Shown here one piece after another: positions 37,443 to 53,072 of a stretch of 64,000 nt of DNA. A program made the position numbers and the translations under genes. Every line of letters starts with the position of its first letter. Positions within the stretch are counted from its first letter, which is position 1. Origin of the DNA: Methylocystis sp. (lineage in GTDB: Bacteria > Pseudomonadota > Alphaproteobacteria > Rhizobiales > Beijerinckiaceae); NCBI GenBank assembly GCA_022843405.1, contig JALHNQ010000001.1, forward strand, positions 61,447 through 125,446, written 5' to 3'. The notes beneath the pieces are model-generated. The model was given only the letters and a program-made list of their open reading frames with translations. It was not told the origin of the DNA and searched no databases.

Positions 37443-39453
<2,011 letters not shown>

Positions 39454-39530
39454 CGCGCCCCGCTGCCCCAATCCCCTCAAGCATACTGGCGCCGCAGACC
39501 ACGAATTCGTGCGGCGCCCGCTTCCTGCAT

Positions 39531-40166
39531 TTAGCGCTTCGCGTCGCTTTCTTCGTCAGGCCGCTTCTCCTGGACGGCGTCGACAATTCCGAAAGCCTTC
39601 GCTTCCTCCGCCGACATGAAATGATCTCGGTCGAGCGTGCGCTCGATCGTGTCGTAATCCTTGCCCGTATGACGGACATAAATGTCATTGAGCCGCTTCT
39701 TCACTTTCAGAATGTCTTCGGCATGGCGCTGAATGTCCGACGCCTGTCCCTGGAAGCCGCCGGACGGCTGGTGCAGCATCACGCGCGCGTTGGGGAGAGC
39801 ATAGCGCAGACCGTCGGCGCCTGCGGTTAGCAGAAGCGAGCCCATGGACGCCGCCTGGCCGACGCAGAGCGTCGACACTTTCGGCTTGATGAACTGCATC
39901 GTGTCGTAAATGGCGAGGCCTGACGTCACCACGCCGCCCGGCGAGTTGATATAGAGCGAGATTTCCTTCTTCGGGTTCTCCGACTCTAGAAACAACAGCT
40001 GCGCGATGATGACCGACGCCATATGGTCTTCGATCGGTCCGGTGATGAAGATGATGCGCTCGCGCAATAGGCGCGAATAGATGTCGAAGCCGCGCTCGCC
40101 GCGAGACGTGTTTTCGATCACCTGCGGAATGAGATATTGGCTGTAGTTTTCGATTGGATCGCGCAT
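39531..40166 (-). CDS. clpP: ATP-dependent Clp protease proteolytic subunit
   Basis: The ClpP serine protease, the tetradecameric chamber used by ClpA/ClpX. The 211-residue protein has the triad Ser107 (GQAASMGS), His132 (MLHQPSGG) and Asp181 (LDRDHFM). The N-terminus ([19 protein letters not shown]) is canonical. It follows tig on the same strand, as usual, but clpX does not follow; the next gene downstream is the carboxylase subunit. Confidence 0.97.
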
Positions 40167-40328
40167 CGGGTATCGCCTCTGTGGTCCGGCGTCGGCTAAC
40201 GCGGCCTCCGCGGGGAAGTCTTGGGCCCGTCATATATCCGCGCCCGCGCCGAACGCAAAGATCACATTACGTCTCGGAGCCGCAGGATTGCCCCGCGACC
40301 CGCCGCCTGCGACGAGCGGCGGCCGAAT

Positions 40329-41675
40329 CTATTCCTCGTCTTCCTTGAACAGCGCTTCACGGGAGACGGTCTTGTCGGCGATCTTGATCAGCTTGGCGAG
40401 ATGATCGACGACGCGCTCCTCGTAGATTGGGGCGCGCAACTGGGCGAGAGCCTGTTCATTGTTGCGGTAATAGTCCCAGACCGCCTTCTCCTGGCCAGGA
40501 AACATGCGCACCCGCTCGACGAGCGCGTCGGTCAGATCCTTCTCGTCAACCGTCACGCCGGCGCTCTTGCCGATCTCGGCCAGAACCAGCCCCAACCGCA
40601 CGCGTCGTTCGGCGATTTTGCGGAACTCGGCTCTGGTCTCTTCCTCGGTCTTGCCTTCTTCCGCGACGGGTTGGCCCGCCTGCTGGCTTTCCTGCTCGTG
40701 CTGGCGCCAGATATTGGCGAATTCCTGCTCGACGAGGCTCTCGGGCAGATCGAAGGAATAGCGGCTGTCGAGCGCGTCGAGGAGCGCGCGCTTCATCTTG
40801 CCGCGCGAGGCCTTGTCGAAGTCGGCTTCGAGGTTGCCGCGAACGGCGGTCTTCATCGCATCAAACGACTCGAAGCCGTATTTCTTGGCGAGTTCCTCGT
40901 CGAGCCCCAGCGTCTTGGGCGCCGAGACGGACTTGACCGTCACATCGAATTCGGCGTCCTTCCCGGCGAGCGATTTGGCGGCGTAGTCATCCGGGAAGCG
41001 GACCTTGACGAGGCGCTGCTCGCCGGCGGCGGCGCCCTCGAGCTGCGCTTCGAAGCCGGGAATGAAGGCGCCTGCGCCCAGCAGCAGATCGACATCGCCG
41101 CCCGAGCCGCCTTCGAAAGGCTCGCCGTCAAGCTTGCCGGTGAAATCGATCGTGACCTTGTCGCCCGTCTCGGCCTTTGCGCCTTCCGGCTTCGCTTCGA
41201 ACTCCTGGGCGCGCTCGGCGAGAGACTGTAGCGCCTTCTCGATGTCCTCTTCCGCCACTTCCGCTACAGGGCGCTCTACGGAAATGTCGTCGAAGGCGCC
41301 GATATCGAACTTGGGCAGCGTTTCGAAAGTGACGACGTAGGAAAAATCGCCCTCGGCCGCGAGCGCGCGCTCGACTTCCTCCTGCCCGCCGGGGAAATCG
41401 ACCTTCGGCTCGAACGCTATGCGCAGCTCATTGTCCGCGACGATCTTGCGGTTGGCGTCGTTGACCGCCTCCTGCAACACGTCGCCCATGATGCTCTTTC
41501 CATAGAGCTTCTTGAGATGGCCGATCGGCGCTTTTCCTGGCCGGAACCCCTTGATCTGACTCTTCGCCTGAAGCTCGGCGAGCTGCGCGGCGAGCTTGGC
41601 GGCGAGTTCGCCGGCCGGCAGAACCACCTTGTATTCCTGCTTCAAACCCTGCGAGGAGGTCTGAGTTACCTGCAT
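40329..41675 (-). CDS. tig: Trigger factor, ribosome-associated chaperone
   Basis: Binds nascent chains at the ribosome exit tunnel. The 448-residue protein has the N-terminal ribosome-binding domain with the GFRPGKAP signature (residues 43-50), an FKBP-type prolyl isomerase domain (about 155-245; GDKVTIDFTGKLDGEPFEGG), and the C-terminal helical chaperone arms. It is upstream of clpP with a gap of 162 bases, so it may be separately transcribed. Confidence 0.97.
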   Translation of the reverse strand: MQVTQTSSQGLKQEYKVVLPAGELAAKLAAQLAELQAKSQIKGFRPGKAPIGHLKKLYGKSIMGDVLQEAVNDANRKIVADNELRIAFEPKVDFPGGQEEVERALAAEGDFSYVVTFETLPKFDIGAFDDISVERPVAEVAEEDIEKALQSLAERAQEFEAKPEGAKAETGDKVTIDFTGKLDGEPFEGGSGGDVDLLLGAGAFIPGFEAQLEGAAAGEQRLVKVRFPDDYAAKSLAGKDAEFDVTVKSVSAPKTLGLDEELAKKYGFESFDAMKTAVRGNLEADFDKASRGKMKRALLDALDSRYSFDLPESLVEQEFANIWRQHEQESQQAGQPVAEEGKTEEETRAEFRKIAERRVRLGLVLAEIGKSAGVTVDEKDLTDALVERVRMFPGQEKAVWDYYRNNEQALAQLRAPIYEERVVDHLAKLIKIADKTVSREALFKEDEE

Positions 41676-41749
41676 CTCGATCGCCTTCTAATAACTGCTG
41701 CGTCGTCGGCGCGCGACGACGCGTGTGCGACTGCCACGGGAGGCGGCGC

Positions 41750-41834
41750 TGGTGCGGGCGGAGGGAGTCGAACCCCCACGACTTTCGTCACCGGAACCTA
41801 AATCCGGCGCGTCTACCAGTTCCGCCACGCCCGC
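41750..41834 (-). tRNA. tRNA-Leu (UAG)
   Basis: Read on the minus strand: acceptor GCGGGCG pairs with CGCCCGC, the anticodon stem CCGGA/TCCGG holds the loop TTTAGGT (anticodon TAG), there is a long variable arm (TGACGAAAGTCG) as in class II tRNAs, and a GGGGGTTCGACTCCC T-arm. Discriminator A and the CCA end are encoded. Confidence 0.96.
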
Positions 41835-42044
41835 GATCGGCGGGAAGGCCGCCTTAATCCCTGCCCACGAATTGGGATCCCTCGAGGCGAAGCCGAGCAA
41901 TCGACTTCCACTCAAACGATCCTGAACCCTAAAAAGGGCGCATCCCTGCGCGCTTGGACGCGGCGTCGACGCGCGCCAAGCGCGAGCGCGACTCGCCGGG
42001 CGACGCTCTATAGCATGGACGCGGCGCGACGCCAGCGCCGCCGG

Positions 42045-42362
42045 CTACTGTGGCGCCACTTGGTGATCGGCGCCGTTTTGCCCGCGGATCAGCGTGATCA
42101 GCTTTTCGCGCCCTTGCGGGTCGCGCCATTTGGCGTTGCAGAGCGTCGGACCGCATACGACTTCCGGAAATTTATACAGGGCCTTGCCCCCGGCGGTTTT
42201 CAAGCCATAGCCGACGTTCGGCCTCCAGCCGCCGGCGATCAGCGACTGGCGATAATCGGAATAGGCTTGCGAAGCCTGTCCCGAGGCGGCGGACGGCAGA
42301 AAACAGGCGGCGGCGCAGAACCCGAAAATGGCGGCGGTCAACTTGCTGCGTGGCGCGGTCAT
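42045..42362 (-). CDS. Small secreted protein of unknown function
   Basis: A 105-residue protein with a clear signal peptide (AAIFGFCAAACFLPSAASG) and a compact mature part carrying VVCGPTLCNAKWRDPQGR, a Cys pair probably forming a disulfide. No family is recognised. It is divergent from the multicopper-oxidase-like gene with 112 bases between them, which may share a promoter region. Confidence 0.65.
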   Translation of the reverse strand: MTAPRSKLTAAIFGFCAAACFLPSAASGQASQAYSDYRQSLIAGGWRPNVGYGLKTAGGKALYKFPEVVCGPTLCNAKWRDPQGREKLITLIRGQNGADHQVAPQ

Positions 42363-42474
42363 GTCTTGGCTCTCCTTGCGCTTTTGGCGGTTCTAGCGCT
42401 CTCCTAACCGCGCGTGAAGCGTCGAGCTTTCAGACGTTGCCCTGGCGGCTCGCCTGCGCCATAGCTAGCGCGCC

Positions 42475-43824
42475 ATGACGAAGCCTCTCTCCCGCCGCGC
42501 CATGCTGTCCGGCGTCGCCGCCAGCCTGACCACATTGCCGGCGCTGGCGCAGGCGCCTGCGGGCCTGCGCACGCTTGAAGCGCGGCCGGGGAAGGCGTCT
42601 CTGTCCGGCGCCCGCGAAACCGGCATTCTTGGTTTCGACGGGACCACGCCGGGACCTGTTCTGCGTTATAAGCAGGGCGACGAACTCGCCGTGCGTTTCG
42701 TCAACCGGCTGGACCGGCCGGCGACGATTCACTGGCATGGCCTGCGCGGCGACAATGCGATGGAGGGCGTCGCGCCGCTGACGCAGGCGCCGATCGCCCC
42801 AGGCGCATCCTTCGATTATCGCCGCAAGCTCGCCGATCCCGGCCTGTTTTGCTATCGGCCGAGCGTCTATGGCGTGACGCCGGAGCTTGTCGGCCGCGGC
42901 CTCAAGGGACTGCTCCTCGTCGATGAGCCGACGCCGCTCCAGGCCGACGCGGACCTGCTGCTCGTTCTCGACGACTGGCTGCTCGACGACGCCGGCCAGG
43001 TGATCGGCGGCTTCGACGACCCGGCGGCGGCGCGCGGCGCTGGCAGGATCGGCTCCCTGCTCAGCGTCAACGGCCAGGCGGCGCCGGCGGCGCAAAGCTT
43101 CGCGCCGGGCGCCAGGGTGCGGCTGCGGCTCGCCAATCTCAGCAACGCGCGGATCATGGTTCTATCCCTGACGGGCGCCCAACCTTTCGTCATCGCCATC
43201 GACAGCCAGCCTTGCGAAGCCTTCGAGCCGATCAAGCGGAGCATTCCCGTCGCGCCGGGCGCGCGCTTCGAGCTGATGTTCGACATGCCGGAGACCGAAG
43301 GCGCCAAGGCCAGTTTGACGCTGCGCGGGCCGAATGGCGAGGATCGCGATCTTCTCATCGCGCAAGCCAAAGGCGAAAAGGCCTTAAAGCGTCCGCCGAT
43401 CGCCTCGCTCCCGCAAAATCCCGAACTTCCTCCCGAGATCAAACTTGCAGGGGCGAGGAAGGTCGATCTCGTGATCGAGCCGCGCGAGGGCGGGGCCGGC
43501 CCCGCCTGGACGATCAACGGCGCGCCGACGAAAGCCTATGAAGGCCCCGCGCTCTTCAAGGTCGCCCGCGGAAGCCCGGTCACGCTGGGATTTGTCAACA
43601 GGTCGGGCGTGGCGCTCGCGATGCATGTGCACGGCCAGTGTATGCGCCTGCTGCATGATCTCGACGACGGTTGGGAGCCCTATTGGCGTAATGGCGTGAT
43701 CATTCCGCCCGGAAAGACCAAACACGCCGCCTTCGTCGCGGAATCGCCAGGAAAATGGGCGATCCATGATGATATTTTGGAACATGAAGCGGGCGGGCTG
43801 GCGACTTGGTTCGAGGTGGTTTGA
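42475..43824 (+). CDS. Multicopper-oxidase-fold protein lacking type-1 copper ligands
   Basis: A 449-residue periplasmic protein with a Tat-like signal (SRRAMLSGVAAS) and three cupredoxin domains. Motif I is intact (IHWHG, His86 and His88). Motif II, normally Y-H-x-H, reads YRPS at 127-130. Motif III keeps only HVHG (His384, His386) and lacks the preceding type-1 His. Motif IV, normally HCHxxxH, reads HDDILEH (431-437), with no Cys. Classical oxidase activity with a type-1 electron entry site is therefore unlikely. FtsP/SufI of E. coli is a precedent for a copper-free member. Confidence 0.85.
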   Translation: MTKPLSRRAMLSGVAASLTTLPALAQAPAGLRTLEARPGKASLSGARETGILGFDGTTPGPVLRYKQGDELAVRFVNRLDRPATIHWHGLRGDNAMEGVAPLTQAPIAPGASFDYRRKLADPGLFCYRPSVYGVTPELVGRGLKGLLLVDEPTPLQADADLLLVLDDWLLDDAGQVIGGFDDPAAARGAGRIGSLLSVNGQAAPAAQSFAPGARVRLRLANLSNARIMVLSLTGAQPFVIAIDSQPCEAFEPIKRSIPVAPGARFELMFDMPETEGAKASLTLRGPNGEDRDLLIAQAKGEKALKRPPIASLPQNPELPPEIKLAGARKVDLVIEPREGGAGPAWTINGAPTKAYEGPALFKVARGSPVTLGFVNRSGVALAMHVHGQCMRLLHDLDDGWEPYWRNGVIIPPGKTKHAAFVAESPGKWAIHDDILEHEAGGLATWFEVV

Positions 43825-43880
43825 CGCAGGCGCGGACCTCACCAAATAGCTCATTGAAATTGATCCTGTTTTCCGTTTAT

Positions 43881-43896
43881 TCAGACTATTGTCTGA
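43881..43896. promoter_or_regulatory. Palindrome upstream of the DSF synthase gene
   Basis: TCAGACTATTGTCTGA: perfect 6-bp arms with a 4-base centre, 170 bases before the rpfF start. It is followed by an AAGGAG sequence (43904-43909) that is not followed by an in-frame start. A dimeric regulator site is plausible; it does not match a box I know. Confidence 0.4.
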
Positions 43897-44065
43897 TCCT
43901 TCACAAGGAGAAATATTCAACCTCTGGCTGAAATCTTTGCCAAGTGCCAGTTTAAGCTCAGATGGCGAGTCTGGCGGATCACGCGGCCGCGTCGTACGGA
44001 GCGTTGCGGCTCGTAAGCGTTCCTGTGAGACCGAGGAGGGAGGCTTTGGCCCTAGATTTTTTGAG

Positions 44066-44998
44066 ATGAGCAGCGCGTCGCCCCTCAAACATCCGCCTCA
44101 AAACTTTCCTGACTGGCGCTTTGAGCACCTCGACATTGAATACCACGCTCCGACACAATCGGTGTGGATGAATTATCGCGCAGATTCGCCGCATTGTTAC
44201 ACATTGCGGATGCTGCAGGATGCGATAGAATTTCGCGACGCGCTCCGATATCTGATGAAAACGGCAGGCGCCGACTGGCCGATCCGCTATGTCGTGATGG
44301 CGTCGAAAAAGCCGAATGTGTTCAGCCTGGGCGGCGATCTTGCGACATTCGTGTCGTGCATCAGGAACAATGACCGGGAGTCGCTGCTAACCTACGCCTA
44401 TGCGTGCATCGAGGTGATGTATGCTCTCACGTCCGCCTTCGACCTTCCGGTTTTGACGCTTTCCGTCGTGAGCGGGCAGTGCATGGGCGGCGGGTTCGAA
44501 GGCGCGCTCGCCACCGACTTTGTCATCGCAGAGGAGGGGTCGCGCCTGGGAGTGCCCGAAATCGCCTTCAACACATTTCCCGGGATGGGCGCGGTGACGT
44601 TTCTGACGCGGCGCGTCGGTCCCGCCCGCACCCAGCAGATTATTTCGGCCGGTCGCGTCTATTCGGCCCGCGAGCTTTTCGATCTCGACATTGTCGACGT
44701 CGTCGCGCCGCAGGGCGGGGCGCTCAAGACCGCACTCGAATGGATGCACGATCCGGACGGTTCGAAATTCCAGCGGCGCCGAGCGCTCGTCAAGCATCGA
44801 AAGCACTGTTTTCCCATCCGCAAGGAGGAATTGCTGCGCGTCGTCGAGCTTTGGACGGATTGCTCGCTCGCCATCTCCAAACAGGACTTGCGCTATATGG
44901 AGCGGCTCGTCTCGGCGCAGTCGCGCCTCTCCGGCGATGGACCGCCGGTTGACAAGGACGACGCTACGAAAAATCCTCCGTCTTCTGAGGAGGATTAG
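44066..44998 (+). CDS. rpfF: RpfF-type DSF synthase (crotonase fold)
   Basis: Makes cis-2-unsaturated fatty acid signals (DSF family) from acyl-ACP by combined dehydration and thioester cleavage. The 310-residue protein follows Xanthomonas RpfF closely as I recall it: NVFSLGGDLATF, GGGFEGAL, IAEEGSRLGVPE, FPGMGA, and the C-terminal ELWTD ... RYMERLVSAQSRLSG. The two catalytic glutamates correspond to Glu145 and Glu165, with the same 20-residue spacing as Glu141/Glu161 of RpfF. ATG 44066 is chosen; the frame is open to 43889 but the extra 59 residues have no counterpart. The stop is 3 bases before the GGDEF-EAL gene. The acyl product is not predictable. Confidence 0.85.
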   Translation: MSSASPLKHPPQNFPDWRFEHLDIEYHAPTQSVWMNYRADSPHCYTLRMLQDAIEFRDALRYLMKTAGADWPIRYVVMASKKPNVFSLGGDLATFVSCIRNNDRESLLTYAYACIEVMYALTSAFDLPVLTLSVVSGQCMGGGFEGALATDFVIAEEGSRLGVPEIAFNTFPGMGAVTFLTRRVGPARTQQIISAGRVYSARELFDLDIVDVVAPQGGALKTALEWMHDPDGSKFQRRRALVKHRKHCFPIRKEELLRVVELWTDCSLAISKQDLRYMERLVSAQSRLSGDGPPVDKDDATKNPPSSEED

Positions 44999-45001
44999 CG
45001 C

Positions 45002-47296
45002 ATGCTCGTCCGCGGGAAGGCAGAAGCCGGCGAAAGCTCGGACGTCCAAATCCATAGCGATCTCGTCGAAACGCTCTTTGGGACAGCCGGTTCGTTTTTC
45101 GCCGGGCTACTCGGCGGCCTGATCGCGCCAGGGCTGGCATGGCTCCTGCTCGCCGATCCAATCTATCTCGGCTTCGTCGCGCTGATCGTCGTCCTCGGCG
45201 CATTTCGGCTTTACGTTTTCCTCGCGCACGCGCGCACGCCCCTCTCGCTTCGCCGGCGGGAGTCCAGAAAATGGGAGCGTCTCTACGCGATCGGCGCAGT
45301 CGGCTTCATGACCGCGGTCGGCGTGTCCGTCGCCGTCCTGTTCTATAATCACTACAACGACTTTCTCGGCATCTACAGCGTCGTCATCATGATGAGCGGG
45401 TTGAGCGGACTTGCGGGCCGCAACGCTGGCCGTCCGTGGATCGTTCTCGCACAGTCGCTCGGTCTTGCGCTTCCTCTTGCGTTTGCCGCGCTGTTGCATG
45501 AAGAGCGGCGCTACCTCGGCCTGGCGCTGATCGTCACGCTGCTGATCATATCCATTCATTCGACGACGAAATTTCTGCACGGAAACCTGGAATCGGCGCT
45601 GCGCAACGGTTTGGACGCCTCTCGCCAGCGGCAAAAATTCAGTCTGGCGCTCAACTCCATGACCCATGGCCTATGCATGGGAGACGCCGATCACTCCGTC
45701 ACCGTCGTGAATCGGCGCGTTTTCGATTTCTTCGGCATCGTGGCGGCGGCGACGCCGATCAAACTTGAGGCGCTTGCGCATGCAATCGGCAAGAGCGCCG
45801 GTCTGTCGGCGCAGGATAGCGAAATCTTCATCGAGCGATGGAAGCGGCATATCGCAATGCCGCATGCGAATATTTTTACGCACAAGCTTGGCGAGCGCTT
45901 TTTCGAATTTCACTGCGAACGCGCCGAAGCGGGATCCTTCATCACCGTCATTGAGGACGTGACGCTTCAAAAGCGCGCTCTGCGCGAAATCGAGCGAATG
46001 GCCCATTTCGACGATCTGACCAATCTGCCAAATCGCTATCAGTTCCAGGAAACGCTTGAAGACGAAATGCTTCAGCTCGGGCAGCGTGGGTTTCAGGCCG
46101 CGCTGCTCAACATTGACCTCGATCGGTTCAAGGATGTCAATGACACATTGGGCCATTCGATCGGCGACCAGCTGCTGTCGACGGTCGGCGCTCGTCTTGC
46201 CGCCTGCGTCCCGCATCCGCACGTGGTCGCGCGACTCGGCGGCGACGAGTTTTGCGTGCTGCTGCGCGCCGGCGACAAGCTGCCCGACGTCGAGGAACTC
46301 GCCGCCAAAATACTGAGCGAGATGCATCGCACTTTCATTGTCGAAAACCATGTCATCAACATCGGCGCGAGCATCGGCATGGCGGCGGCGCCAAAGGACT
46401 CAGCGACGTCAGGAGGCCTGCTCAGATGCAGCGATCTCGCGCTCTACCGGTCGAAAGCCCAGGGGCGCGGCAAGGCGATCTGGTATTCGCAGGAGATGCA
46501 GGAGGCGCTCACTCGAAAGCGTGCGATCGACACGGAGCTGCGTCACGCGTTCCTGGCGAATGAACTGGTAGTCTATTATCAGCCAGTCGTCGATTCCCGC
46601 ACGGCGACAATCGTTTCGCTGGAGGCGCTGCTACGTTGGCGCCACCCGACCAGAGGCATGATCCGTCCGGGCGAATTCATTCCCGTCGCGGAAGAAACCG
46701 GCATGATTATCGAGCTCGGCGCCTGGGCGCTGCGGCAGGCGTGCAACGACGCCAAATCCTGGCCCTCGAACGTCCGCGTCGCGGTCAATATCGCGCCCAG
46801 GCAATTCCAGCAGAAGGACCTGGCCGAAATGGTCGCGCAGACGCTCCGCGAATCGGGATTGGAGCCCGATCGTTTGGAACTCGAAATCACCGAGACGACG
46901 CTCATGGAATCCGATGACGTCGAAAGCAAGTTGCGGGAGATCGAGGAACTGGGGGTGCGTCTGTCGCTGGACGACTTCGGCACCGGCTATAGCAGCCTCG
47001 GCTATCTCAATCGTTTCCCGGTAAAGAAGGTCAAGATCGACCGCTCATTCGCGCGGCAAGCGATCGAGTCGCCGAAAACGCAGGCGATCGTTTCGGCGAT
47101 CTCCGCGCTTGCGCAGGATCTGTCGATTGATCTCGTCGCCGAAGGCGTCGAGACCGATGCTCAACTGGCCTTCATGGCGAGCAAGCATATTTTTCTCATT
47201 CAGGGCTATCTCTACACGCGGCCCCGGCCAATCGAGGAGCTTAGACCGCTGCTCGCCCATTGGCGCGACGCGCCGCGCCTCGTCAGCGCGGCGTGA
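45002..47296 (+). CDS. Membrane PAS-GGDEF-EAL cyclic-di-GMP protein
   Basis: A 764-residue protein expected to make and/or hydrolyse cyclic-di-GMP. Residues about 25-190 hold some six hydrophobic segments, an uncharacterised membrane input domain. A PAS-like region (200-325) follows, then GGDEF (413-417, intact) and EAL (Glu541 in SLEALLRWRHP; DDFGTGYSS at 657-665), both with active-site residues. No RxxD inhibitory site is seen ahead of GGDEF. A strong GAGGAGG site lies inside the end of rpfF, 3-base gap, so translation is coupled to the DSF synthase. Sensing of the rpfF product is inferred, by analogy with RpfR of Burkholderia, although the input domain here differs. Confidence 0.93.
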   Translation: MLVRGKAEAGESSDVQIHSDLVETLFGTAGSFFAGLLGGLIAPGLAWLLLADPIYLGFVALIVVLGAFRLYVFLAHARTPLSLRRRESRKWERLYAIGAVGFMTAVGVSVAVLFYNHYNDFLGIYSVVIMMSGLSGLAGRNAGRPWIVLAQSLGLALPLAFAALLHEERRYLGLALIVTLLIISIHSTTKFLHGNLESALRNGLDASRQRQKFSLALNSMTHGLCMGDADHSVTVVNRRVFDFFGIVAAATPIKLEALAHAIGKSAGLSAQDSEIFIERWKRHIAMPHANIFTHKLGERFFEFHCERAEAGSFITVIEDVTLQKRALREIERMAHFDDLTNLPNRYQFQETLEDEMLQLGQRGFQAALLNIDLDRFKDVNDTLGHSIGDQLLSTVGARLAACVPHPHVVARLGGDEFCVLLRAGDKLPDVEELAAKILSEMHRTFIVENHVINIGASIGMAAAPKDSATSGGLLRCSDLALYRSKAQGRGKAIWYSQEMQEALTRKRAIDTELRHAFLANELVVYYQPVVDSRTATIVSLEALLRWRHPTRGMIRPGEFIPVAEETGMIIELGAWALRQACNDAKSWPSNVRVAVNIAPRQFQQKDLAEMVAQTLRESGLEPDRLELEITETTLMESDDVESKLREIEELGVRLSLDDFGTGYSSLGYLNRFPVKKVKIDRSFARQAIESPKTQAIVSAISALAQDLSIDLVAEGVETDAQLAFMASKHIFLIQGYLYTRPRPIEELRPLLAHWRDAPRLVSAA

Positions 47297-47314
47297 GCGT
47301 TCGGCACGCAAGTT

Positions 47315-48007
47315 TCAGTTGCGTTCAAGCGCCGCCAGAGACCGTCTGTCGACGACAGGCTGCACCATGCGCTGCGCGCGAAAAATCGCGTGCGACGCAT
47401 TGTAGCGCCGGCCGAATTGGGCGAGATAACGCTCGATTGCGTCGATCCCCGCCTGCGGCTCGACGACGTCTCGGACGATCAGCAGATCGCGAGCCTCTTC
47501 AGCGGTGAGCGCCGCATTGTTCTCGATGAGACGCTCAGCCTTGACGAAGCCCAATGTGCGGCCGACCGCCGCGTAAAGACCCAGAAGGTCCACGGCGTCT
47601 CCCGAAAAGGAGAATTGCGCGCTCTTTTCCGCAACGATCGCCGAGCAATGCATGGCGAAGTCGAAATCTGAGCCGCTCATTAGGCCACGAGCCCAGGCGA
47701 GCGTGATCACCGGCGTATCGACGATCAGTTCCGAATTTTCGGCGGCGATATCGCCAAATCCTTCCGCCGGTCTCGTCGCTTCGCGGACCCCATGGGCGAA
47801 ATCGTAAACGAGGTAGCGAATTTCACTGAGCTCCCCTCGGTCGATCGCCGCTAATAGATCAGTAATTGTCCTGATCGTCAGCGCGTCAAAACCCGGTCGA
47901 GTCTTGCGCAATACTAGAGCCTGGCGGTCTTTCAACCATAGGGTCGAAAGACAGCCGCCGTTGACAGAAAGTTCAGTCTGCGGACGCAGATAAGGAAAGT
48001 TCACCAT
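47315..48007 (-). CDS. Divergent crotonase-fold protein without catalytic glutamates
   Basis: A 230-residue protein. Residues 60-185 follow the enoyl-CoA hydratase pattern: IRYLVYDFAHG, TPVITLAWARGLMSGSDFDFAMHCSAIV, QFSFSGDAVDLLGLYAAVGR, and AALTAEEARDLLIVRDVV. At the positions of RpfF Glu145 and Glu165 it has Asp116 and no glutamate, so RpfF-like or hydratase chemistry is doubtful. It faces the GGDEF-EAL gene, 18 bases between stops. It could be a regulatory partner of the DSF synthase (compare RpfF-binding proteins) or an altered enzyme. Homology is by pattern only. Confidence 0.65.
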   Translation of the reverse strand: MVNFPYLRPQTELSVNGGCLSTLWLKDRQALVLRKTRPGFDALTIRTITDLLAAIDRGELSEIRYLVYDFAHGVREATRPAEGFGDIAAENSELIVDTPVITLAWARGLMSGSDFDFAMHCSAIVAEKSAQFSFSGDAVDLLGLYAAVGRTLGFVKAERLIENNAALTAEEARDLLIVRDVVEPQAGIDAIERYLAQFGRRYNASHAIFRAQRMVQPVVDRRSLAALERN

Positions 48008-48433
48008 GTTTCCCGCCGTCTTTTGTGGAAGGTTGGATTAGGTTAAATGAAAATTTAACTTCGCCAACCCTGGCGGCGATGATTGCATTGAATGCGCTTA
48101 CTTTTATAGGTTTTTGAATTTAAAGCCTCATCGCCAGCGCGGGCGGGCCGAAGAAATTTATCGTCAGCCGATAGGAATGTACAATATGCGGGTCGCGCAT
48201 GACTTTTTTAAATCGAGCCGGCGCATATTTTTTGCCTGCCGTGTCTCTTGGTCGCGGGACAAGCGCGCCGCTCCTGTCCTATATTGACTTAAGCGAAGCT
48301 GACGGCTGCGAGTCCGCGCTCGTTAGCTCGCTTTCGCGCACCGAGCGTGCGAGACATGGCCGCGCCGGGGCCGGATCCGTGCACCGATAAGACCGCCGAA
48401 TGAGAGCGGCCCGTCCAGAAGGGAGAAGACCAG
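48008..48433. other. Divergent intergenic region with an inverted repeat
   Basis: 426 bases between the crotonase-like gene and the gene at 48434. It is AT-rich near 48040-48125. GTTAAAT (48042-48048) and ATTTAAC (48053-48059) form a 7-bp inverted repeat 35 bases before the crotonase-like start, a candidate operator or promoter element. An AAGGGAGA ribosome site for the right-hand gene lies near 48418. No additional gene is seen. Confidence 0.45.
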
Positions 48434-49003
48434 ATGATGATGCGATTTTTCGCCGCGGCGCTATTGGCGGCGGCCGGTTGGGTCACGCAAGCGCATGCGC
48501 ATGGCGACGTTGGCGTCAACCAGGGTCAGTGCCTCATGAAGCTCGGCCCGGACACGATGACTTTTACCGGCTATCAGCCGCAAAAGTCTCGCGAGCAGTT
48601 TTGCGACGACATTCCCGACGCGGGTCCGACCATTATCACGCTGGACGCGCAGCAGGACGAGTTGCGCGACATGAACCTCGAAATGCGCGTCATTCGCGAC
48701 GTCGGCCAGAAGGACGACAATGAAAATCTCGAGGCCAATACCGAATATTATTCTCCGCCGAAGAAGTATAAGACAGGCACCCTCACCTTCGAGCATGTGT
48801 TTCCGCAGGAAGGAAAATTCATCGGGCTCGTTAAGGCGAAGAGCGATGATGGGACCAAGGAATATGTCGCCCGCTTTCCCTTCTCCGTCGGATTGACGCA
48901 GTCGAGGGAAATTACCATCGCCGTATTCTTCGGGGCCTTGGCGCTGGTCGGTTTCGGCCTTTGGTACAGGAACCAGTTCATGGCCAAAAAGCCGAAGGCG
49001 TAA
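48434..49003 (+). CDS. Periplasmic membrane-anchored protein of unknown function
   Basis: A 189-residue protein with a signal peptide ending at AHA, a periplasmic domain and a C-terminal transmembrane anchor (ITIAVFFGALALVGFGLWY) with a basic tail. The mature start HGDVGVNQGQC, followed by FTGYQPQ and EQFCDDIP, is a pattern I recall from uncharacterised proteins of several proteobacteria. The N-terminal His, two Cys and several Met would suit metal binding. A beta-sandwich (TLTFEHVFPQEGKFIGLVKA) is likely. Function unknown. Confidence 0.8.
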   Translation: MMMRFFAAALLAAAGWVTQAHAHGDVGVNQGQCLMKLGPDTMTFTGYQPQKSREQFCDDIPDAGPTIITLDAQQDELRDMNLEMRVIRDVGQKDDNENLEANTEYYSPPKKYKTGTLTFEHVFPQEGKFIGLVKAKSDDGTKEYVARFPFSVGLTQSREITIAVFFGALALVGFGLWYRNQFMAKKPKA

Positions 49004-49010
49004 ATCCGCT

Positions 49011-49694
49011 TCAGCCCAAAATCTCAATGCGACCGTCGCGTAACGTCACGCGGCGGTCCATTTGCTTCGCGAGCTCGAGATTGTGAGTCGCGATGAGCGC
49101 CGCGAGTCCGGTGTTGCGCGCAAGCGTCAGCAGCGTGCCGAAAACATGCTCGGCCGTTCGCGGATCGAGATTTCCGGTCGGCTCGTCGGCAAGTAGAAGA
49201 TGCGGCGCGTTGGCGACCGCGCGCGCGATGGCGACGCGCTGCTGTTCGCCGCCGGAAAGCTCCGAGGGCCGATGCGACGCGCGCGGTCCAAGCCGCAGAT
49301 AATCGAGCAGCTGTTGCGCCCGAAGGCGCGCTTCGCCCTTGTTCAAGCCATTGATCATCTGCGGAAGCGCGACATTCTCGAGCGCCGAGAATTCCGGCAG
49401 CAGGTGGTGGAATTGATAAATAAAGCCGACAGTGGCGCGCCGCAGCCGCGTGCGCTCGGAGTCGGACATGCGCGACGTTGGCGCATTCTTGATCAGGACT
49501 TCGCCGCCATCTTGGCGCTCCAAGAGCCCGGCGATATGGAGAAGCGTCGACTTGCCGGCGCCTGACGGCGCCAACAGCGCGACCGTCTCGCCGGGATAGA
49601 TCGACAGATTGATATTGACGAGAATGTCCAGTCGCGCCTCGCCCTCGCGATAGTGGCGCGCGACATTGCGCAATTCGAGAACGGCCTCGTTCAT
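49011..49694 (-). CDS. lolD: Lipoprotein-releasing system ATP-binding protein
   Basis: The ATPase of the LolCDE-type ABC transporter that extracts lipoproteins from the inner membrane for transfer to LolA. The 227-residue protein has Walker [10 protein letters not shown], signature [14 protein letters not shown] and Walker [13 protein letters not shown]. It lies 5 bases downstream of the permease gene. Confidence 0.95.
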
Positions 49695-49699
49695 CGTGG

Positions 49700-50980
49700 T
49701 TACTCGTGCCGCAGCGCTTCGATCGGGTCGAGCGACGCTGCCTTCCAGGCTGGATAGATCGAGGCGAGAATGGCGAGAACGAGAGTCATGACGACGATCG
49801 CCGCGACTTCGCGCGGATCGACGATCGCCGGAAGGCGCGAGAGAAAATAGAATTCCGCGGGAAAGAGATTGGCGTCGAAAATCTTGTTGATAAAGACGCG
49901 AATGGCGTCGAGGTTTTTCGCCAGCGCCAATCCCAGTGCAAATCCGGCCAGCGTGCCGACAACGCCGATCGACGCGCCGATAATCAGGAAGATGCGCAGC
50001 ACCGCGCCGCGCGTCGCGCCCATGGTGCGCAATATGGCGATGTCCTGAGTCTTGTCCTTCACGAGCATCGTCAGGCCGGAGATGATGTTGAACGCCGCGA
50101 CCACGACGATCAGCGCGAGAATGATGAAGAGGATGTTTTTTTCGACCTGCAGGGTGTCAAAGAATGTTTTGTTGCGCTGGCGCCAGTCAGTGACGATCAG
50201 TGGGCGCTCGACCGCTTTTTCGACGTTGATGCGAAAGTCGTCCATCTTCTCGGGATCGGAGACGAAGGCCTCGATGACCGTCGCTTCATTGTCCTTGTTG
50301 AAGAAGAGCTGAGCCTCGGCGAGCGGCATATAGACGAAGACATTGTCGAATTCGGACATGCCGATCGAGAAAATCGCGACGACATTATAGGCCTTGATCC
50401 GCGGCGCGACGCCAAACGGCGTCTGCGCGCCCTTGGCGATCAGCAGGCTGACCGGGTCGCCGACGCCGACCCCCAGCGTTTCCGCCAACCGCTGGCCGAT
50501 GGCGAGGCCGCCGGCCTTGTCGAACCCCGCCAGCGCGCCGCTTTTCACATTGCTCGCCACGCCCGGCAGCCGCGCCAGGTCCTTTCCCCGAACGCCGCGC
50601 ACCAGAACGCCGGACTGACCGAACTGGGTCGATATGCCGGCCGCGCCCTCGACCATCGGAATCGCCAGCTGCACGCCCGGTATCTTCGCGGTCTTTGCCG
50701 ACACCTGCTCCCAATCGGTGAAGGGAGTCTCCACCGCCTGAAGAAAGGCGTGGCCGTTGACGCCCAGGATTTTGTCCATCAGCTCGCGATGAAATCCGTT
50801 CATCACCGACGTGACGACGATCAGGGTGGCGACCCCCAGCATGATGCCGAGAAAAGAAAATCCGGCGATCACCGAGACGAAGCCGTCGGCGCGACGGGCG
50901 CGCAGATAGCGCAGCGCCAGCATCCGCTCGAAGCCCGAGAAAGCGCCGGCGCCTTTCGCCGGCAGAGCCGCTTCGGTCAT
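49700..50980 (-). CDS. lolC: Lipoprotein-releasing system permease (LolC/LolE family)
   Basis: A 426-residue inner-membrane protein with four transmembrane helices: one near residue 40 ([24 protein letters not shown]) and three at the C-terminus, separated by a large periplasmic domain. The N-terminal [14 protein letters not shown] and the C-terminal [18 protein letters not shown] are typical. Alphaproteobacteria usually have one such permease acting as a homodimer. It overlaps proS by 4 bases. Confidence 0.95.
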
Positions 50981-52317
50981 GCCTGCCCCGGCCTGATGGC
51001 GGCGACGATGCGGGTGACGGCGTCCTCGGGCGCGAGCAGTTCGCGCTCGCCCGTGCGGCGTTGTTTGACCTCGACTCTGCCCTCGGCGAGGCCTTTGGGA
51101 CCGACGAGAACCTGCCAGGGCAGGCCGATGAGATCGAGCGTGGCGAATTTCGCGCCGGGACGTTCGTCGCGGTCCTCATGCAGCACGTCCAGGCCGGCGT
51201 TCTCAAGCTGCTCGATGAGATCGGCGCAGACCTTGCCCGTTTCCGAGTCGCCGACTTTGAGGTCGGCGACGCCGACGTGAAACGGCGCGACCGATTCAGG
51301 CCAGATGACGCCATTGTCGTCATGGCTCGCCTCGATGATGGCGGCGACGAGCCGCGACGGGCCGATGCCGTAGGAACCCATTTGCACGACGACCTCCTTG
51401 CCGTCCGGCCCGTTGACCACGGCCTTCATTGGCTCGGAATATTTGGTTCCGAAGTAGAAAATATGGCCGACTTCGATGCCGCGCGCCGCGACCCGCGCCT
51501 CCTCCGGCACGGCGGCGAAGGCCGCTTTGTCGTGCATCTCGCTCGTCGCCGCGTAGCGGCTGGTCCATTTGTCGACGATCCCCTGCAGGCCCGCCGCATC
51601 GTCAAAATCGACCGAGGCGGGCGGCGGCGCGAAGGAGAGGAAATCCTTGTGGCAGAAGACCTCGCTCTCGCCGGTCGAGGCGAGAATGATGAACTCATGG
51701 CTGTTGCCGCCGATCGGGCCGGATTCGGCCGCCATCGGAATGGCGGTCAGCCCCATGCGCGCGAAGGTGCGCAGATAGGCGACGAACATCTTGTTATAGG
51801 AATGGCGGCCGGCCTCGGCCGTCAGATCGAAGGAATAGGCGTCCTTCATCAGGAACTCGCGCGAGCGCATCACGCCGAAACGCGGGCGGACCTCGTCCCG
51901 AAACTTCCACTGGATGTGAAAAAGATTGAGCGGCAGGTCCTTATAAGAGCGCACCGAGGCGCGGAAAATCTCGGTGATCATCTCCTCATTGGTGGGGCCG
52001 TAGAGCATTTCCCGATCATGGCGGTCGGCGATGCGCAGCATTTCCTTGCCATAGGCGTCATAGCGCCCCGACTCGCGCCACAGATCGGCGGGCTGGATGG
52101 TCGGCATCAGACATTCGATGGCGCCGGCGCGGATCTGCTCCTCGCGGATGATGGCGTTGATCTTATTGAGCACGCGCAGTCCGAGCGGCAGCCAGGCGTA
52201 GATGCCGGCCGACTCCTGTCGGATCATGCCCGCCCGCAGCATCAGCCGGTGCGAGACGATTTCGGCCTCTTTCGGCGTCTCGCGCAAAATGGGCAGGAAA
52301 TAGCGGGAAAGGCGCAT
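50977..52317 (-). CDS. proS: Prolyl-tRNA synthetase
   Basis: Charges tRNA-Pro. The 446-residue protein is the short bacterial form without the editing insertion, normal for alphaproteobacteria. Class II motifs are visible: motif 1 around [21 protein letters not shown], motif 2 [25 protein letters not shown], motif 3 [13 protein letters not shown]; the C-terminal anticodon-binding domain follows. ATG 52317 matches the usual start (MRLSRYFLP); the frame is open to 52377. It is first in the proS-lolC-lolD operon. Confidence 0.96.
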
Positions 52318-52491
52318 CTGGAATCCGGTTGGGCGAATCGGGGAGCGGCGAGCATAGCCTGTCCGCCGCCCGAGCAAACGGCGCGGGCGGGCCTATCAAC
52401 CCCCGCATGGCCGAAAACGCAAGCGGCAGGCCCCCTTCCTTTTTGGGGTCGCGCGCCCATTTCGGGAGCATGAACTCTTGAGGAGGCCGGC

Positions 52492-52743
52492 ATGGGCGAG
52501 ACTATGGGCAAGGCTAAAGGAGAGCCGGCGGTTAGACATCCCTGGGGAAGCGTGCGCGACAATCCCGAGTTCAGCCGCTTCGAACTCGACGCCGACGGCG
52601 ACACCGCGCTCGCCTATTACCGCATCGACAATGACGTGATGGTCTTCACCTCGACGCAGACGCCGCCGGCGCTACAGGGCCAGGGCGTCGCGTCGGAGCT
52701 GATCCGCAACGCGCTGGAATTCGCGCGGGCGCGCGGATTTTAA
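52492..52743 (+). CDS. Small GNAT-like acetyltransferase, C-terminally truncated
   Basis: An 83-residue protein of the short YjdJ-type GNAT family: FELDADGDTALAYYRIDNDVMVF, TPPALQGQGVASELIRNALEFARARG. The acetyl-CoA loop (QGQGVAS) is present. Family members normally continue about 12-15 residues past RGF with a strand ending in a 'RHPEY' motif; here a TAA follows RGF at once. It may be a decaying gene. Confidence 0.65.
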   Translation: MGETMGKAKGEPAVRHPWGSVRDNPEFSRFELDADGDTALAYYRIDNDVMVFTSTQTPPALQGQGVASELIRNALEFARARGF

Positions 52744-53072
52744 AGGTTAGGGGTGACTGTTCCTTCGTTGCGGATTATCTGCGGCGCCATCCCGAAGGCG
52801 CCGATTGACCGTAGGAGTTCGCGGCACGCTTTTCTCCCGCTCGCGGGAGAACGCAACCCGACGAAGCTGGGGCGAATGAGGGCAAGCCATGCGCGACCGG
52901 CTTCGCGCCAGGTTGCGTGAAGTCATCGAGCGGGGCAAACCCCGCCGCCAGCAGCATCATGAAATTGAAGACGCTGCGCAGGCCGGAACGACCGCAGAGA
53001 TATTTTTTTACGGAGTCGCTGCGGCGCGTCGCATCGCGGGCGGGGCTGAATAGGAACTCAAGCCCCTATAGA
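52744..53072. other. Intergenic region with a hairpin, no gene seen
   Basis: 329 bases between the truncated GNAT gene and the TfoX-like gene. A perfect hairpin TTCTCCCGC-TC-GCGGGAGAA lies at 52832-52851 and may be a terminator or dispersed palindrome. The short frames show no domain. Confidence 0.5.

What the first reader, a model, noticed from the sequence alone, without database searches (positions are those of the whole stretch)
44066..48007. Candidate DSF / cyclic-di-GMP signalling module: RpfF synthase, coupled membrane GGDEF-EAL protein, and a crotonase-like partner
The first gene has every RpfF hallmark, including both catalytic glutamates at the correct 20-residue spacing. Its stop is 3 bases from a PAS-GGDEF-EAL gene whose ribosome site lies inside rpfF. 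A second crotonase-fold gene faces the pair. RpfF working with cyclic-di-GMP proteins is established for RpfF/RpfR (Burkholderia, Cronobacter) and RpfF/RpfC/RpfG (Xanthomonas). Here rpfC, rpfG and rpfB are absent and the GGDEF-EAL protein has a six-segment membrane input domain instead of the RpfR FI-PAS arrangement, so this may be a different DSF circuit.
Basis: partly seen in the sequence, partly recalled or inferred. Interest (0 to 1): 0.85.

Follow-up and report, generated by a model that had tools for sequence, protein, structure and literature searches.

The report
Methanotroph fatty-acid signal–sensor gene module
A methane-eating bacterium (Methylocystis) carries a gene that looks like a maker of a fatty-acid signal, joined to a membrane sensor that controls a second messenger, and relatives appear to have exchanged the maker and the sensor's membrane half together, as if signal and receiver must match.

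Summary
44066-44998 encodes an RpfF-clade crotonase with the RpfF active-site residues, followed after 3 bp by a six-helix-membrane–PAS–GGDEF–EAL protein and faced by a second crotonase-fold gene. Relatives are Methylocystis. The pair is in 22 of 22 readable loci of this type, the third gene beside it in 16 of 18. It is neither RpfF/RpfC/RpfG nor RpfF/RpfR: no RpfC-type input was found in the genome, the membrane domain shows no homology to it, and the sensor does not group with three RpfR-type proteins. The genome has 3 GGDEF and 2 EAL proteins. The third protein lacks the second glutamate, GGD loop and FPGMG in 18 of 18 sequences, yet is under purifying selection. New here: synthase and sensor membrane half place two Methylocystis loci together against the output half and third protein (AU p 0.001 and 4e-7, groups chosen afterwards). 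Between this genome and Methylocystis sp. B8 a 1.75-kb tract holding just synthase plus membrane domain differs inside 85%-identical DNA. This fits a matched signal–receptor cassette ('pherotype') exchanged at least twice. The chemistry is untested, the pattern rests mainly on two loci, and neutral recombination is not excluded.

The parts
44066..44998 (+). P1: RpfF-clade crotonase, candidate cis-2-enoic fatty-acid (DSF-type) synthase; Glu145 at 44498-44500, Glu165 at 44558-44560
44989..44993 (+). GGAGG, likely ribosome-binding site for GE, inside the 3' end of P1
45002..47296 (+). GE: membrane PAS-GGDEF-EAL protein, candidate receptor and c-di-GMP enzyme; GGDEF and EAL motifs intact by reading the translation
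45002..45616 (+). GE membrane input domain (residues 1-205): helices 29-50, 53-78, 88-116, 120-140, 145-165, 170-218, the last running on to the PAS domain
45650..45979 (+). GE PAS_7 domain (residues 217-326)
46001..46471 (+). GE GGDEF domain (residues 334-490)
46535..47224 (+). GE EAL domain (residues 512-741)
47315..48007 (-). P2: degenerate crotonase-fold protein (pseudo-synthase), convergent with GE
43818..45561 (.). Tract that differs between this window and Methylocystis sp. B8 (exchanged in one or other lineage): intergenic region + P1 + GE residues 1 to about 187, with ~85% identical DNA on both sides; the left edge lies in a stretch that is variable in other relatives too

Best explanation
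A DSF-type fatty-acid signalling module of a third architecture. Inferred from family: P1 dehydrates a 3-hydroxyacyl-ACP and cleaves the thioester, releasing a cis-2-unsaturated fatty acid. Inferred: that lipid-soluble product is sensed in or at the six-helix membrane domain of GE, and the signal passes down the continuous sixth helix into the PAS domain to shift the balance of the GGDEF and EAL domains, changing c-di-GMP (most likely activating EAL, by analogy with RpfR). With 3 GGDEF and 2 EAL proteins found in the genome (shown), GE would be a main control point. Shown: two close Methylocystis loci carry a different P1 and a different membrane domain on nearly the same output half and P2. 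Inferred: the two parts travel together because synthase and sensor must match, either ligand to receptor or protein to protein. P2 is a conserved, probably catalytically dead crotonase; because it stays with the output half when P1 differs, I infer that it acts on or with GE rather than as an allele-specific subunit of P1.
For: P1 in the RpfF-like clade. P1 next to GE in 22 of 22 readable loci (24 found, 2 contigs end at P1) and P2 adjacent in 16 of 18. In 37 genomes of the genus P1 and P2 occur together in 24, neither in 12, P2 alone in 1 whose contig starts inside GE. Identity correlations (Pearson) over 22 loci: P1-membrane domain 0.965, output half-P2 0.988, cross 0.72-0.76; over 18 representatives 0.876, 0.984, 0.53-0.61. 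Trees and AU tests. B8 breakpoints. Small c-di-GMP inventory. dN/dS about 0.07-0.15 in all blocks.
Against: No biochemistry: product and ligand are unknown. P1 scores 192 bits against NCBI's RpfF equivalog cut-off of 550; RpfR-linked homologues fail too (179-188) and 1 of 299 genomes passed. P1 3' and membrane-domain 5' are adjacent, so one neutral tract explains their shared history. With ranks instead of values (Spearman, 18 representatives) the contrast nearly vanishes for P1: 0.758 with the membrane domain, 0.751 with P2, 0.695 with the output half; the signal comes mainly from L109 and L110. P1 and membrane trees do not agree everywhere: the window's group joins L112 by membrane domain (95/91) but L103, weakly (49/58), by P1, and L111's nearest rows differ. 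Four membrane-PAS-GGDEF-EAL proteins without a crotonase neighbour were seen. The Bosea-type pair shows no such exchange. No PilZ match, so the effector is unknown. 2 of 18 loci (L102, L114) have no adjacent P2 and in G031 it is 2 Mb away.
Confidence: 0.6

Rival explanations
1. Matching is by protein contact, not ligand: P1 docks on the cytoplasmic loops of the GE membrane domain, which holds it inactive, as RpfC and the RpfR FI domain hold RpfF; the signal may be sensed by the PAS domain, which is not exchanged.
For: RpfF is restrained by its sensor in both known systems (PMC6361424, passages; PMC4517397, passages). GE has a PAS domain, the domain type that binds BDSF in RpfR (PMC8846402, passages). 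The exchanged part of GE is only the membrane domain.
Against: No FI domain or docking surface identified; the membrane domain is mostly helices and short loops.
Confidence: 0.25
2. The module is DSF-like but the cassette exchange is neutral: ordinary recombination tracts that happened to span P1 and the 5' part of GE.
For: The two pieces are contiguous; breaks lie where flanking DNA is conserved, which recombination needs anyway. Only two loci (L109, L110) show it, and rank correlations show little contrast for P1. No exchange in the Bosea type.
Against: Both right-hand breaks fall near the membrane/PAS boundary (about residue 187 in L109 and 194-210 in L110). P1 and membrane domain are 52% and 47% identical between window and B8 while flanking proteins are ordinary (ClpP 96, trigger factor 91, LolE 93). 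In S. maltophilia the synthase and sensor variants of rpf-1/rpf-2 are fully associated (PMC4517397, passages).
Confidence: 0.3
3. P1 is a metabolic or lipid-remodelling crotonase, and GE senses something else (oxygen, redox, membrane state); co-transcription reflects a shared stimulus, not signalling.
For: No product known; unlinked GE-like proteins exist; a related crotonase with Asp for Glu145 sits beside the same kind of GE in 42 of 42 Bosea-type loci, so the link does not need canonical RpfF chemistry.
Against: RpfF-specific motifs and clade; RpfF-like genes beside c-di-GMP proteins of several architectures across the clade; joint placing of P1 and the input domain in L109 and L110.
Confidence: 0.2

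Closest known systems
RpfF/RpfR (Burkholderia, Cronobacter)
   Same: RpfF-clade synthase beside a PAS-GGDEF-EAL protein
   Different: RpfR is soluble (PMC4504480, passages) with an N-terminal FI domain and convergent with rpfF (PMC6361424, passages); GE has a six-helix membrane domain, is co-directional with P1, and falls across a 99-supported branch from three RpfR-type proteins
RpfF/RpfC/RpfG (Xanthomonas, Stenotrophomonas)
   Same: RpfF-clade synthase with a multi-helix membrane sensor feeding c-di-GMP
   Different: RpfC is a hybrid kinase and RpfG a separate HD-GYP protein; here sensor and c-di-GMP domains are one protein, the membrane domains show no detectable homology (hhalign probability 4.8%), and no RpfC input or HD_5 domain was found in the genome
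S. maltophilia rpf-1/rpf-2 variants
   Same: synthase and sensor variants are fully associated, with horizontal exchange proposed (PMC4517397, passages)
   Different: there the sensor is RpfC and mainly the N-termini of RpfF and RpfC differ; here the whole synthase plus membrane domain differ and the GGDEF-EAL output half stays

Membership tests
RpfF (DSF synthase) | crotonase-type sequence with two catalytic Glu 20 apart and oxyanion-loop glycines | tested here: met
   26 of 26 module P1s have E145, E165, GGD and G142; G141 in 24 of 26. The roles of these residues are recalled
RpfF (DSF synthase) | groups with RpfFs apart from enoyl-CoA hydratases | tested here: met
   SH-aLRT 99 with 4 hydratases as outgroup; quick tree with long outgroup branches
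RpfF (DSF synthase) | NCBIfam NF053515 equivalog cut-off (550 bits) | tested here: not met
   192 bits; five RpfR-linked homologues score 179-188 and also fail. So filed as RpfF-clade (PRK08788, 284 bits, cut-off 177), not as the equivalog
RpfF (DSF synthase) | makes a cis-2-unsaturated fatty acid from 3-hydroxyacyl-ACP | not testable with these tools
   needs mass spectrometry
RpfR | soluble FI-PAS-GGDEF-EAL | tested here: not met
   six membrane helices at the N-terminus; tree apart from three RpfR-type proteins
RpfC/RpfG | hybrid kinase with RpfC input plus HD-GYP partner | tested here: not met
   no RpfC input domain among 35 hits in the genome; no HD_5 match
Active crotonase (for P2) | second catalytic Glu, GGD loop, FPGMG | tested here: not met
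   0 of 18 P2s; an acid stands at the first Glu in 18 of 18 (15 Asp, 3 Glu)

The most novel reading that the evidence does not exclude
Methylocystis carries a lipid 'pherotype' locus: diversified, matched alleles of a fatty-acid signal synthase and a six-helix receptor domain, exchanged as one cassette onto a conserved c-di-GMP output half and a conserved pseudo-synthase, so that close relatives talk on different private channels and strains can switch channel by recombination.
Probability: 0.35. Interest if true: 0.87.

Novelty: new variant of a known kind. Interest (0 to 1): 0.73.

Why it matters
DSF perception has been described through two core pathways, RpfCG and RpfR (PMC4504480, passages), with BDSF-RpfR reported as widespread in Beta- and Gammaproteobacteria (PMC8846402, passages). 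A third circuit, a membrane GGDEF-EAL sensor in methane oxidisers, would extend DSF-type signalling to bacteria that matter for the methane budget, would give a one-protein membrane receptor candidate, and would offer natural chimaeras that show which domain carries specificity. What a membrane DSF receptor recognises would become testable by swapping one 1.7-kb cassette.

Tried and rejected
Homology of the GE membrane domain to the RpfC input domain: not detected, hhalign probability 4.8%. A known fold for the membrane domain: among the 50 PDB matches listed (of 653), those I could judge match the PAS part or helices of other sensors, none a six-helix membrane domain. A general rule that synthase and membrane domain diversify together: not so in the Bosea type (41 loci; among 35 Bosea-like, synthase median identity 88.6% against 80.6% for the membrane domain, and the P1-membrane correlation, 0.743, is the lowest of ten). 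P2 as an allele-specific subunit of P1: disfavoured, P2 keeps 82-91% identity to the window's where P1 drops to 50-52%. P2 as a decaying pseudogene: rejected, dN/dS 0.10-0.14 over 6 comparisons. That P2 descends from RpfF is likely but unsure: long branch, and its fold matches crotonases in general. Promoter scan: 3 found, 1.7 expected; terminator-like 10 found, 5.8 expected; not used.

Rows dropped. One search translated several loci out of frame and is superseded. The ProS row was mis-framed and is not used. The label 'Mcys_linked' for L114_2853 is wrong: it is another gene of that contig. The tree used 88 of 133 gathered sequences: near-copies, L175, L195 and two longer own crotonases (L004, L006) were left out; L131 (synthase split over two frames) had been left out before. 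One search used 22 loci with all three genes; L092, L094, L101, L102, L104, L105, L111 and L114 lack one gene or are cut by contig ends. L133 repeats L132 and was left out. The named loci come from one peptide pattern and are the best 80 of 91.
Full report
What is there. The three ORFs stand as reported. P1 (44066-44998, +, 310 aa) has its best solved relatives among RpfF proteins and belongs to NCBI's PRK08788 (284 bits, cut-off 177), not to the stricter RpfF equivalog (192 bits, cut-off 550). That cut-off was passed in 1 of 299 genomes sampled across the phylum (51 had a match), and RpfF-like proteins beside RpfR-type genes fail it too (179-188 bits). GE (45002-47296, +, 764 aa) has PAS_7, GGDEF and EAL behind six membrane helices. 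P2 (47315-48007, -, 230 aa) is a crotonase fold by model. GE starts 3 bp after P1 with GGAGG inside P1. The nearest named cultured genomes are Methylocystis.

P1 is an RpfF-clade protein. In a tree of 88 sequences P1 lies within an 84-row RpfF-like clade, apart from 4 hydratases of the same genome (SH-aLRT 99; quick tree, long outgroup branches).

Partners of RpfF-like genes (classes by position and domain scan, Pfam run on single examples). (a) RpfC-type kinase: in three xanthomonad-like genomes (identity inferred), and in 10 Hyphomicrobiales loci where the RpfG place holds a REC-GGDEF-EAL protein (L115 confirmed by Pfam, with a PAS). (b) RpfR-type PAS-GGDEF-EAL in 5 loci (L212 confirmed by Pfam; the FI domain was not tested). 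(c) The window's type: P1 then membrane PAS-GGDEF-EAL, same strand, in 22 of 22 readable loci (24 found; L092 and L094 end at P1) from Methylocystis, Methylosinus, Rhodoblastus and some MAGs, with P2 beside it in 16 of 18 loci that reach far enough (not in L102, L114). (d) RpfF-like gene convergent with a PAS_7-GGDEF-EAL gene with a related N-terminus in L089 and L206. (e) A Bosea type, 42 of 42 loci, with Asp for Glu145. The named loci are the best 80 of 91 from one peptide-pattern scan.

Co-occurrence. In 37 genomes of the genus (own included), module-type P1 and P2 are both present in 24, both absent in 12 (2 of these, G025 and G033, have the Bosea type), and P2 alone is found in 1, whose contig begins inside GE. 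Of the 24, 20 have P1, GE and P2 adjacent on one contig, 3 are split by contig ends, and in 1 (G031) P2 lies about 2 Mb away. In G024 GE, and in G032 GE and P2, have frame breaks in the assembly.

Not a known circuit. Of 35 hits to an RpfC-like query in the genome none covers residues 1-170. No HD_5 domain was found. The GE membrane domain shows no homology to the RpfC input and no convincing match among solved folds. GE is not on the side of three RpfR-type proteins in the tree. Four membrane PAS-GGDEF-EAL proteins without a synthase neighbour were seen, so the architecture is wider than this module. The genome holds 3 GGDEF and 2 EAL proteins by Pfam models, GE counted in both.

The cassette. 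Pairwise identities over 22 loci correlate (Pearson) 0.965 between P1 and the membrane domain, 0.988 between the output half and P2, and 0.72-0.76 across. With 18 representatives: 0.876, 0.984 and 0.53-0.61. By rank (Spearman) the contrast is much weaker: P1-membrane 0.758, P1-P2 0.751, P1-output 0.695, output-P2 0.947. So the pattern comes mainly from two loci, and these were tested by trees of 18 loci. P1 and membrane domain both put Methylocystis sp. B8 (L109) with another Methylocystis group (98/96 and 100/100) and reject a clade of the window's group with L109 and L110 (AU p 0.0012 and 4e-7); the output half and P2 show exactly that clade (100/100, 99/99), and the output half rejects L109 with the other group (p 1e-5). 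The groups were chosen after the identities were seen, so the p values are descriptive. P1 and membrane trees do not agree everywhere: the window's group stands with L112 by membrane domain (95/91) and weakly with L103 by P1 (49/58). L110 is nested within the window's group by output half (96/94), and L109, L110 and the window carry three P1 types 49-58% identical, so at least two changes of type are needed; which lineage received which type is not settled.

On the DNA, B8 is about 85% identical to the window from 37447 to 43817 and from 45562 to 52782, with the tract between at 31-67% in 100-base windows. The left edge cannot be placed exactly, because the intergenic stretch is variable in strain H62 too (59-72%). 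For L110 the left flank is off the contig; its right break is near 45.58-45.63 kb by sliding window, though the BLAST alignment reaches back to 45272. Flanking proteins of B8 are as close to the window as those of H62 (ClpP 96/96, trigger factor 91/91, LolE 93/92), but P1 is 52 against 82 and the membrane domain 47 against 88.

How I read it. The simplest functional account is that P1 makes a signal and the membrane domain is its matched sensor or docking partner, with c-di-GMP as output. A precedent exists: in S. maltophilia RpfF and RpfC variants are fully associated and horizontal exchange is proposed (PMC4517397, passages). Because P1 and the membrane domain are contiguous, a neutral tract is the chief rival; the placing of both right-hand breaks near the membrane/PAS boundary speaks against it but does not exclude it. 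The Bosea type gives no support.

P2. Profile comparison aligns it to P1 residues 125-252 (E 2e-18) with a gap next to the Glu165 region. It lacks GGD, Glu165 and FPGMG in 18 of 18 and keeps an acid at the first Glu position. It has its own invariant residues and dN/dS near 0.1. It stays with the output half, also in G031 where it is unlinked (L084 rows). I place its action with GE; that is inference, since both may simply follow the species tree.

In print. Searches in the held library for DSF/RpfF with Methylobacterium, Methylocystis (quorum sensing), Bosea, alphaproteobacteria, methanotroph, Rhizobiales and Methylosinus, and for crotonase with GGDEF/EAL, showed no paper on this module in the listings seen (20 of 55 listed, 22: 15 of 35, 23, 28, 34, 42, 43, 84); two further searches were for precedents. 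Of all papers I saw only listings, apart from passages of PMC6361424, PMC4504480, PMC8357829, PMC8846402 and PMC4517397. Most subscription papers are not held.

Noticed in passing
L115, L116, L117, L119, L121, L122, L131, L202, L203, L088: Hyphomicrobiales RpfF-like loci with an RpfC-like hybrid kinase in which the RpfG place holds a REC-GGDEF-EAL protein (10 loci; Pfam domains checked for L115 only): a second unusual DSF circuit.
   Followed up: partly
L129, L130, L132-L171: Bosea/Methylorubrum/Enterovirga-type crotonase with Asp in place of the first catalytic Glu and no FPGMG motif, beside a membrane PAS-GGDEF-EAL gene in 42 of 42 loci.
   Followed up: partly
L125 7962-9787: Two rpfF-like genes face each other beside an RpfC-like kinase and a REC-HD_5 (RpfG-like) gene in a gammaproteobacterial MAG.
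   Followed up: no
window 42475-43824 and 48434-49003: A multicopper oxidase and a conserved 189-aa protein without a Pfam match flank the module, and their homologues lie in most of the 16 relative loci compared; no link to the module was tested.
   Followed up: no
own genome G000: Small c-di-GMP inventory: 3 GGDEF, 2 EAL, no HD_5 and no PilZ match at E 0.001, so the effector is unknown.
   Followed up: partly
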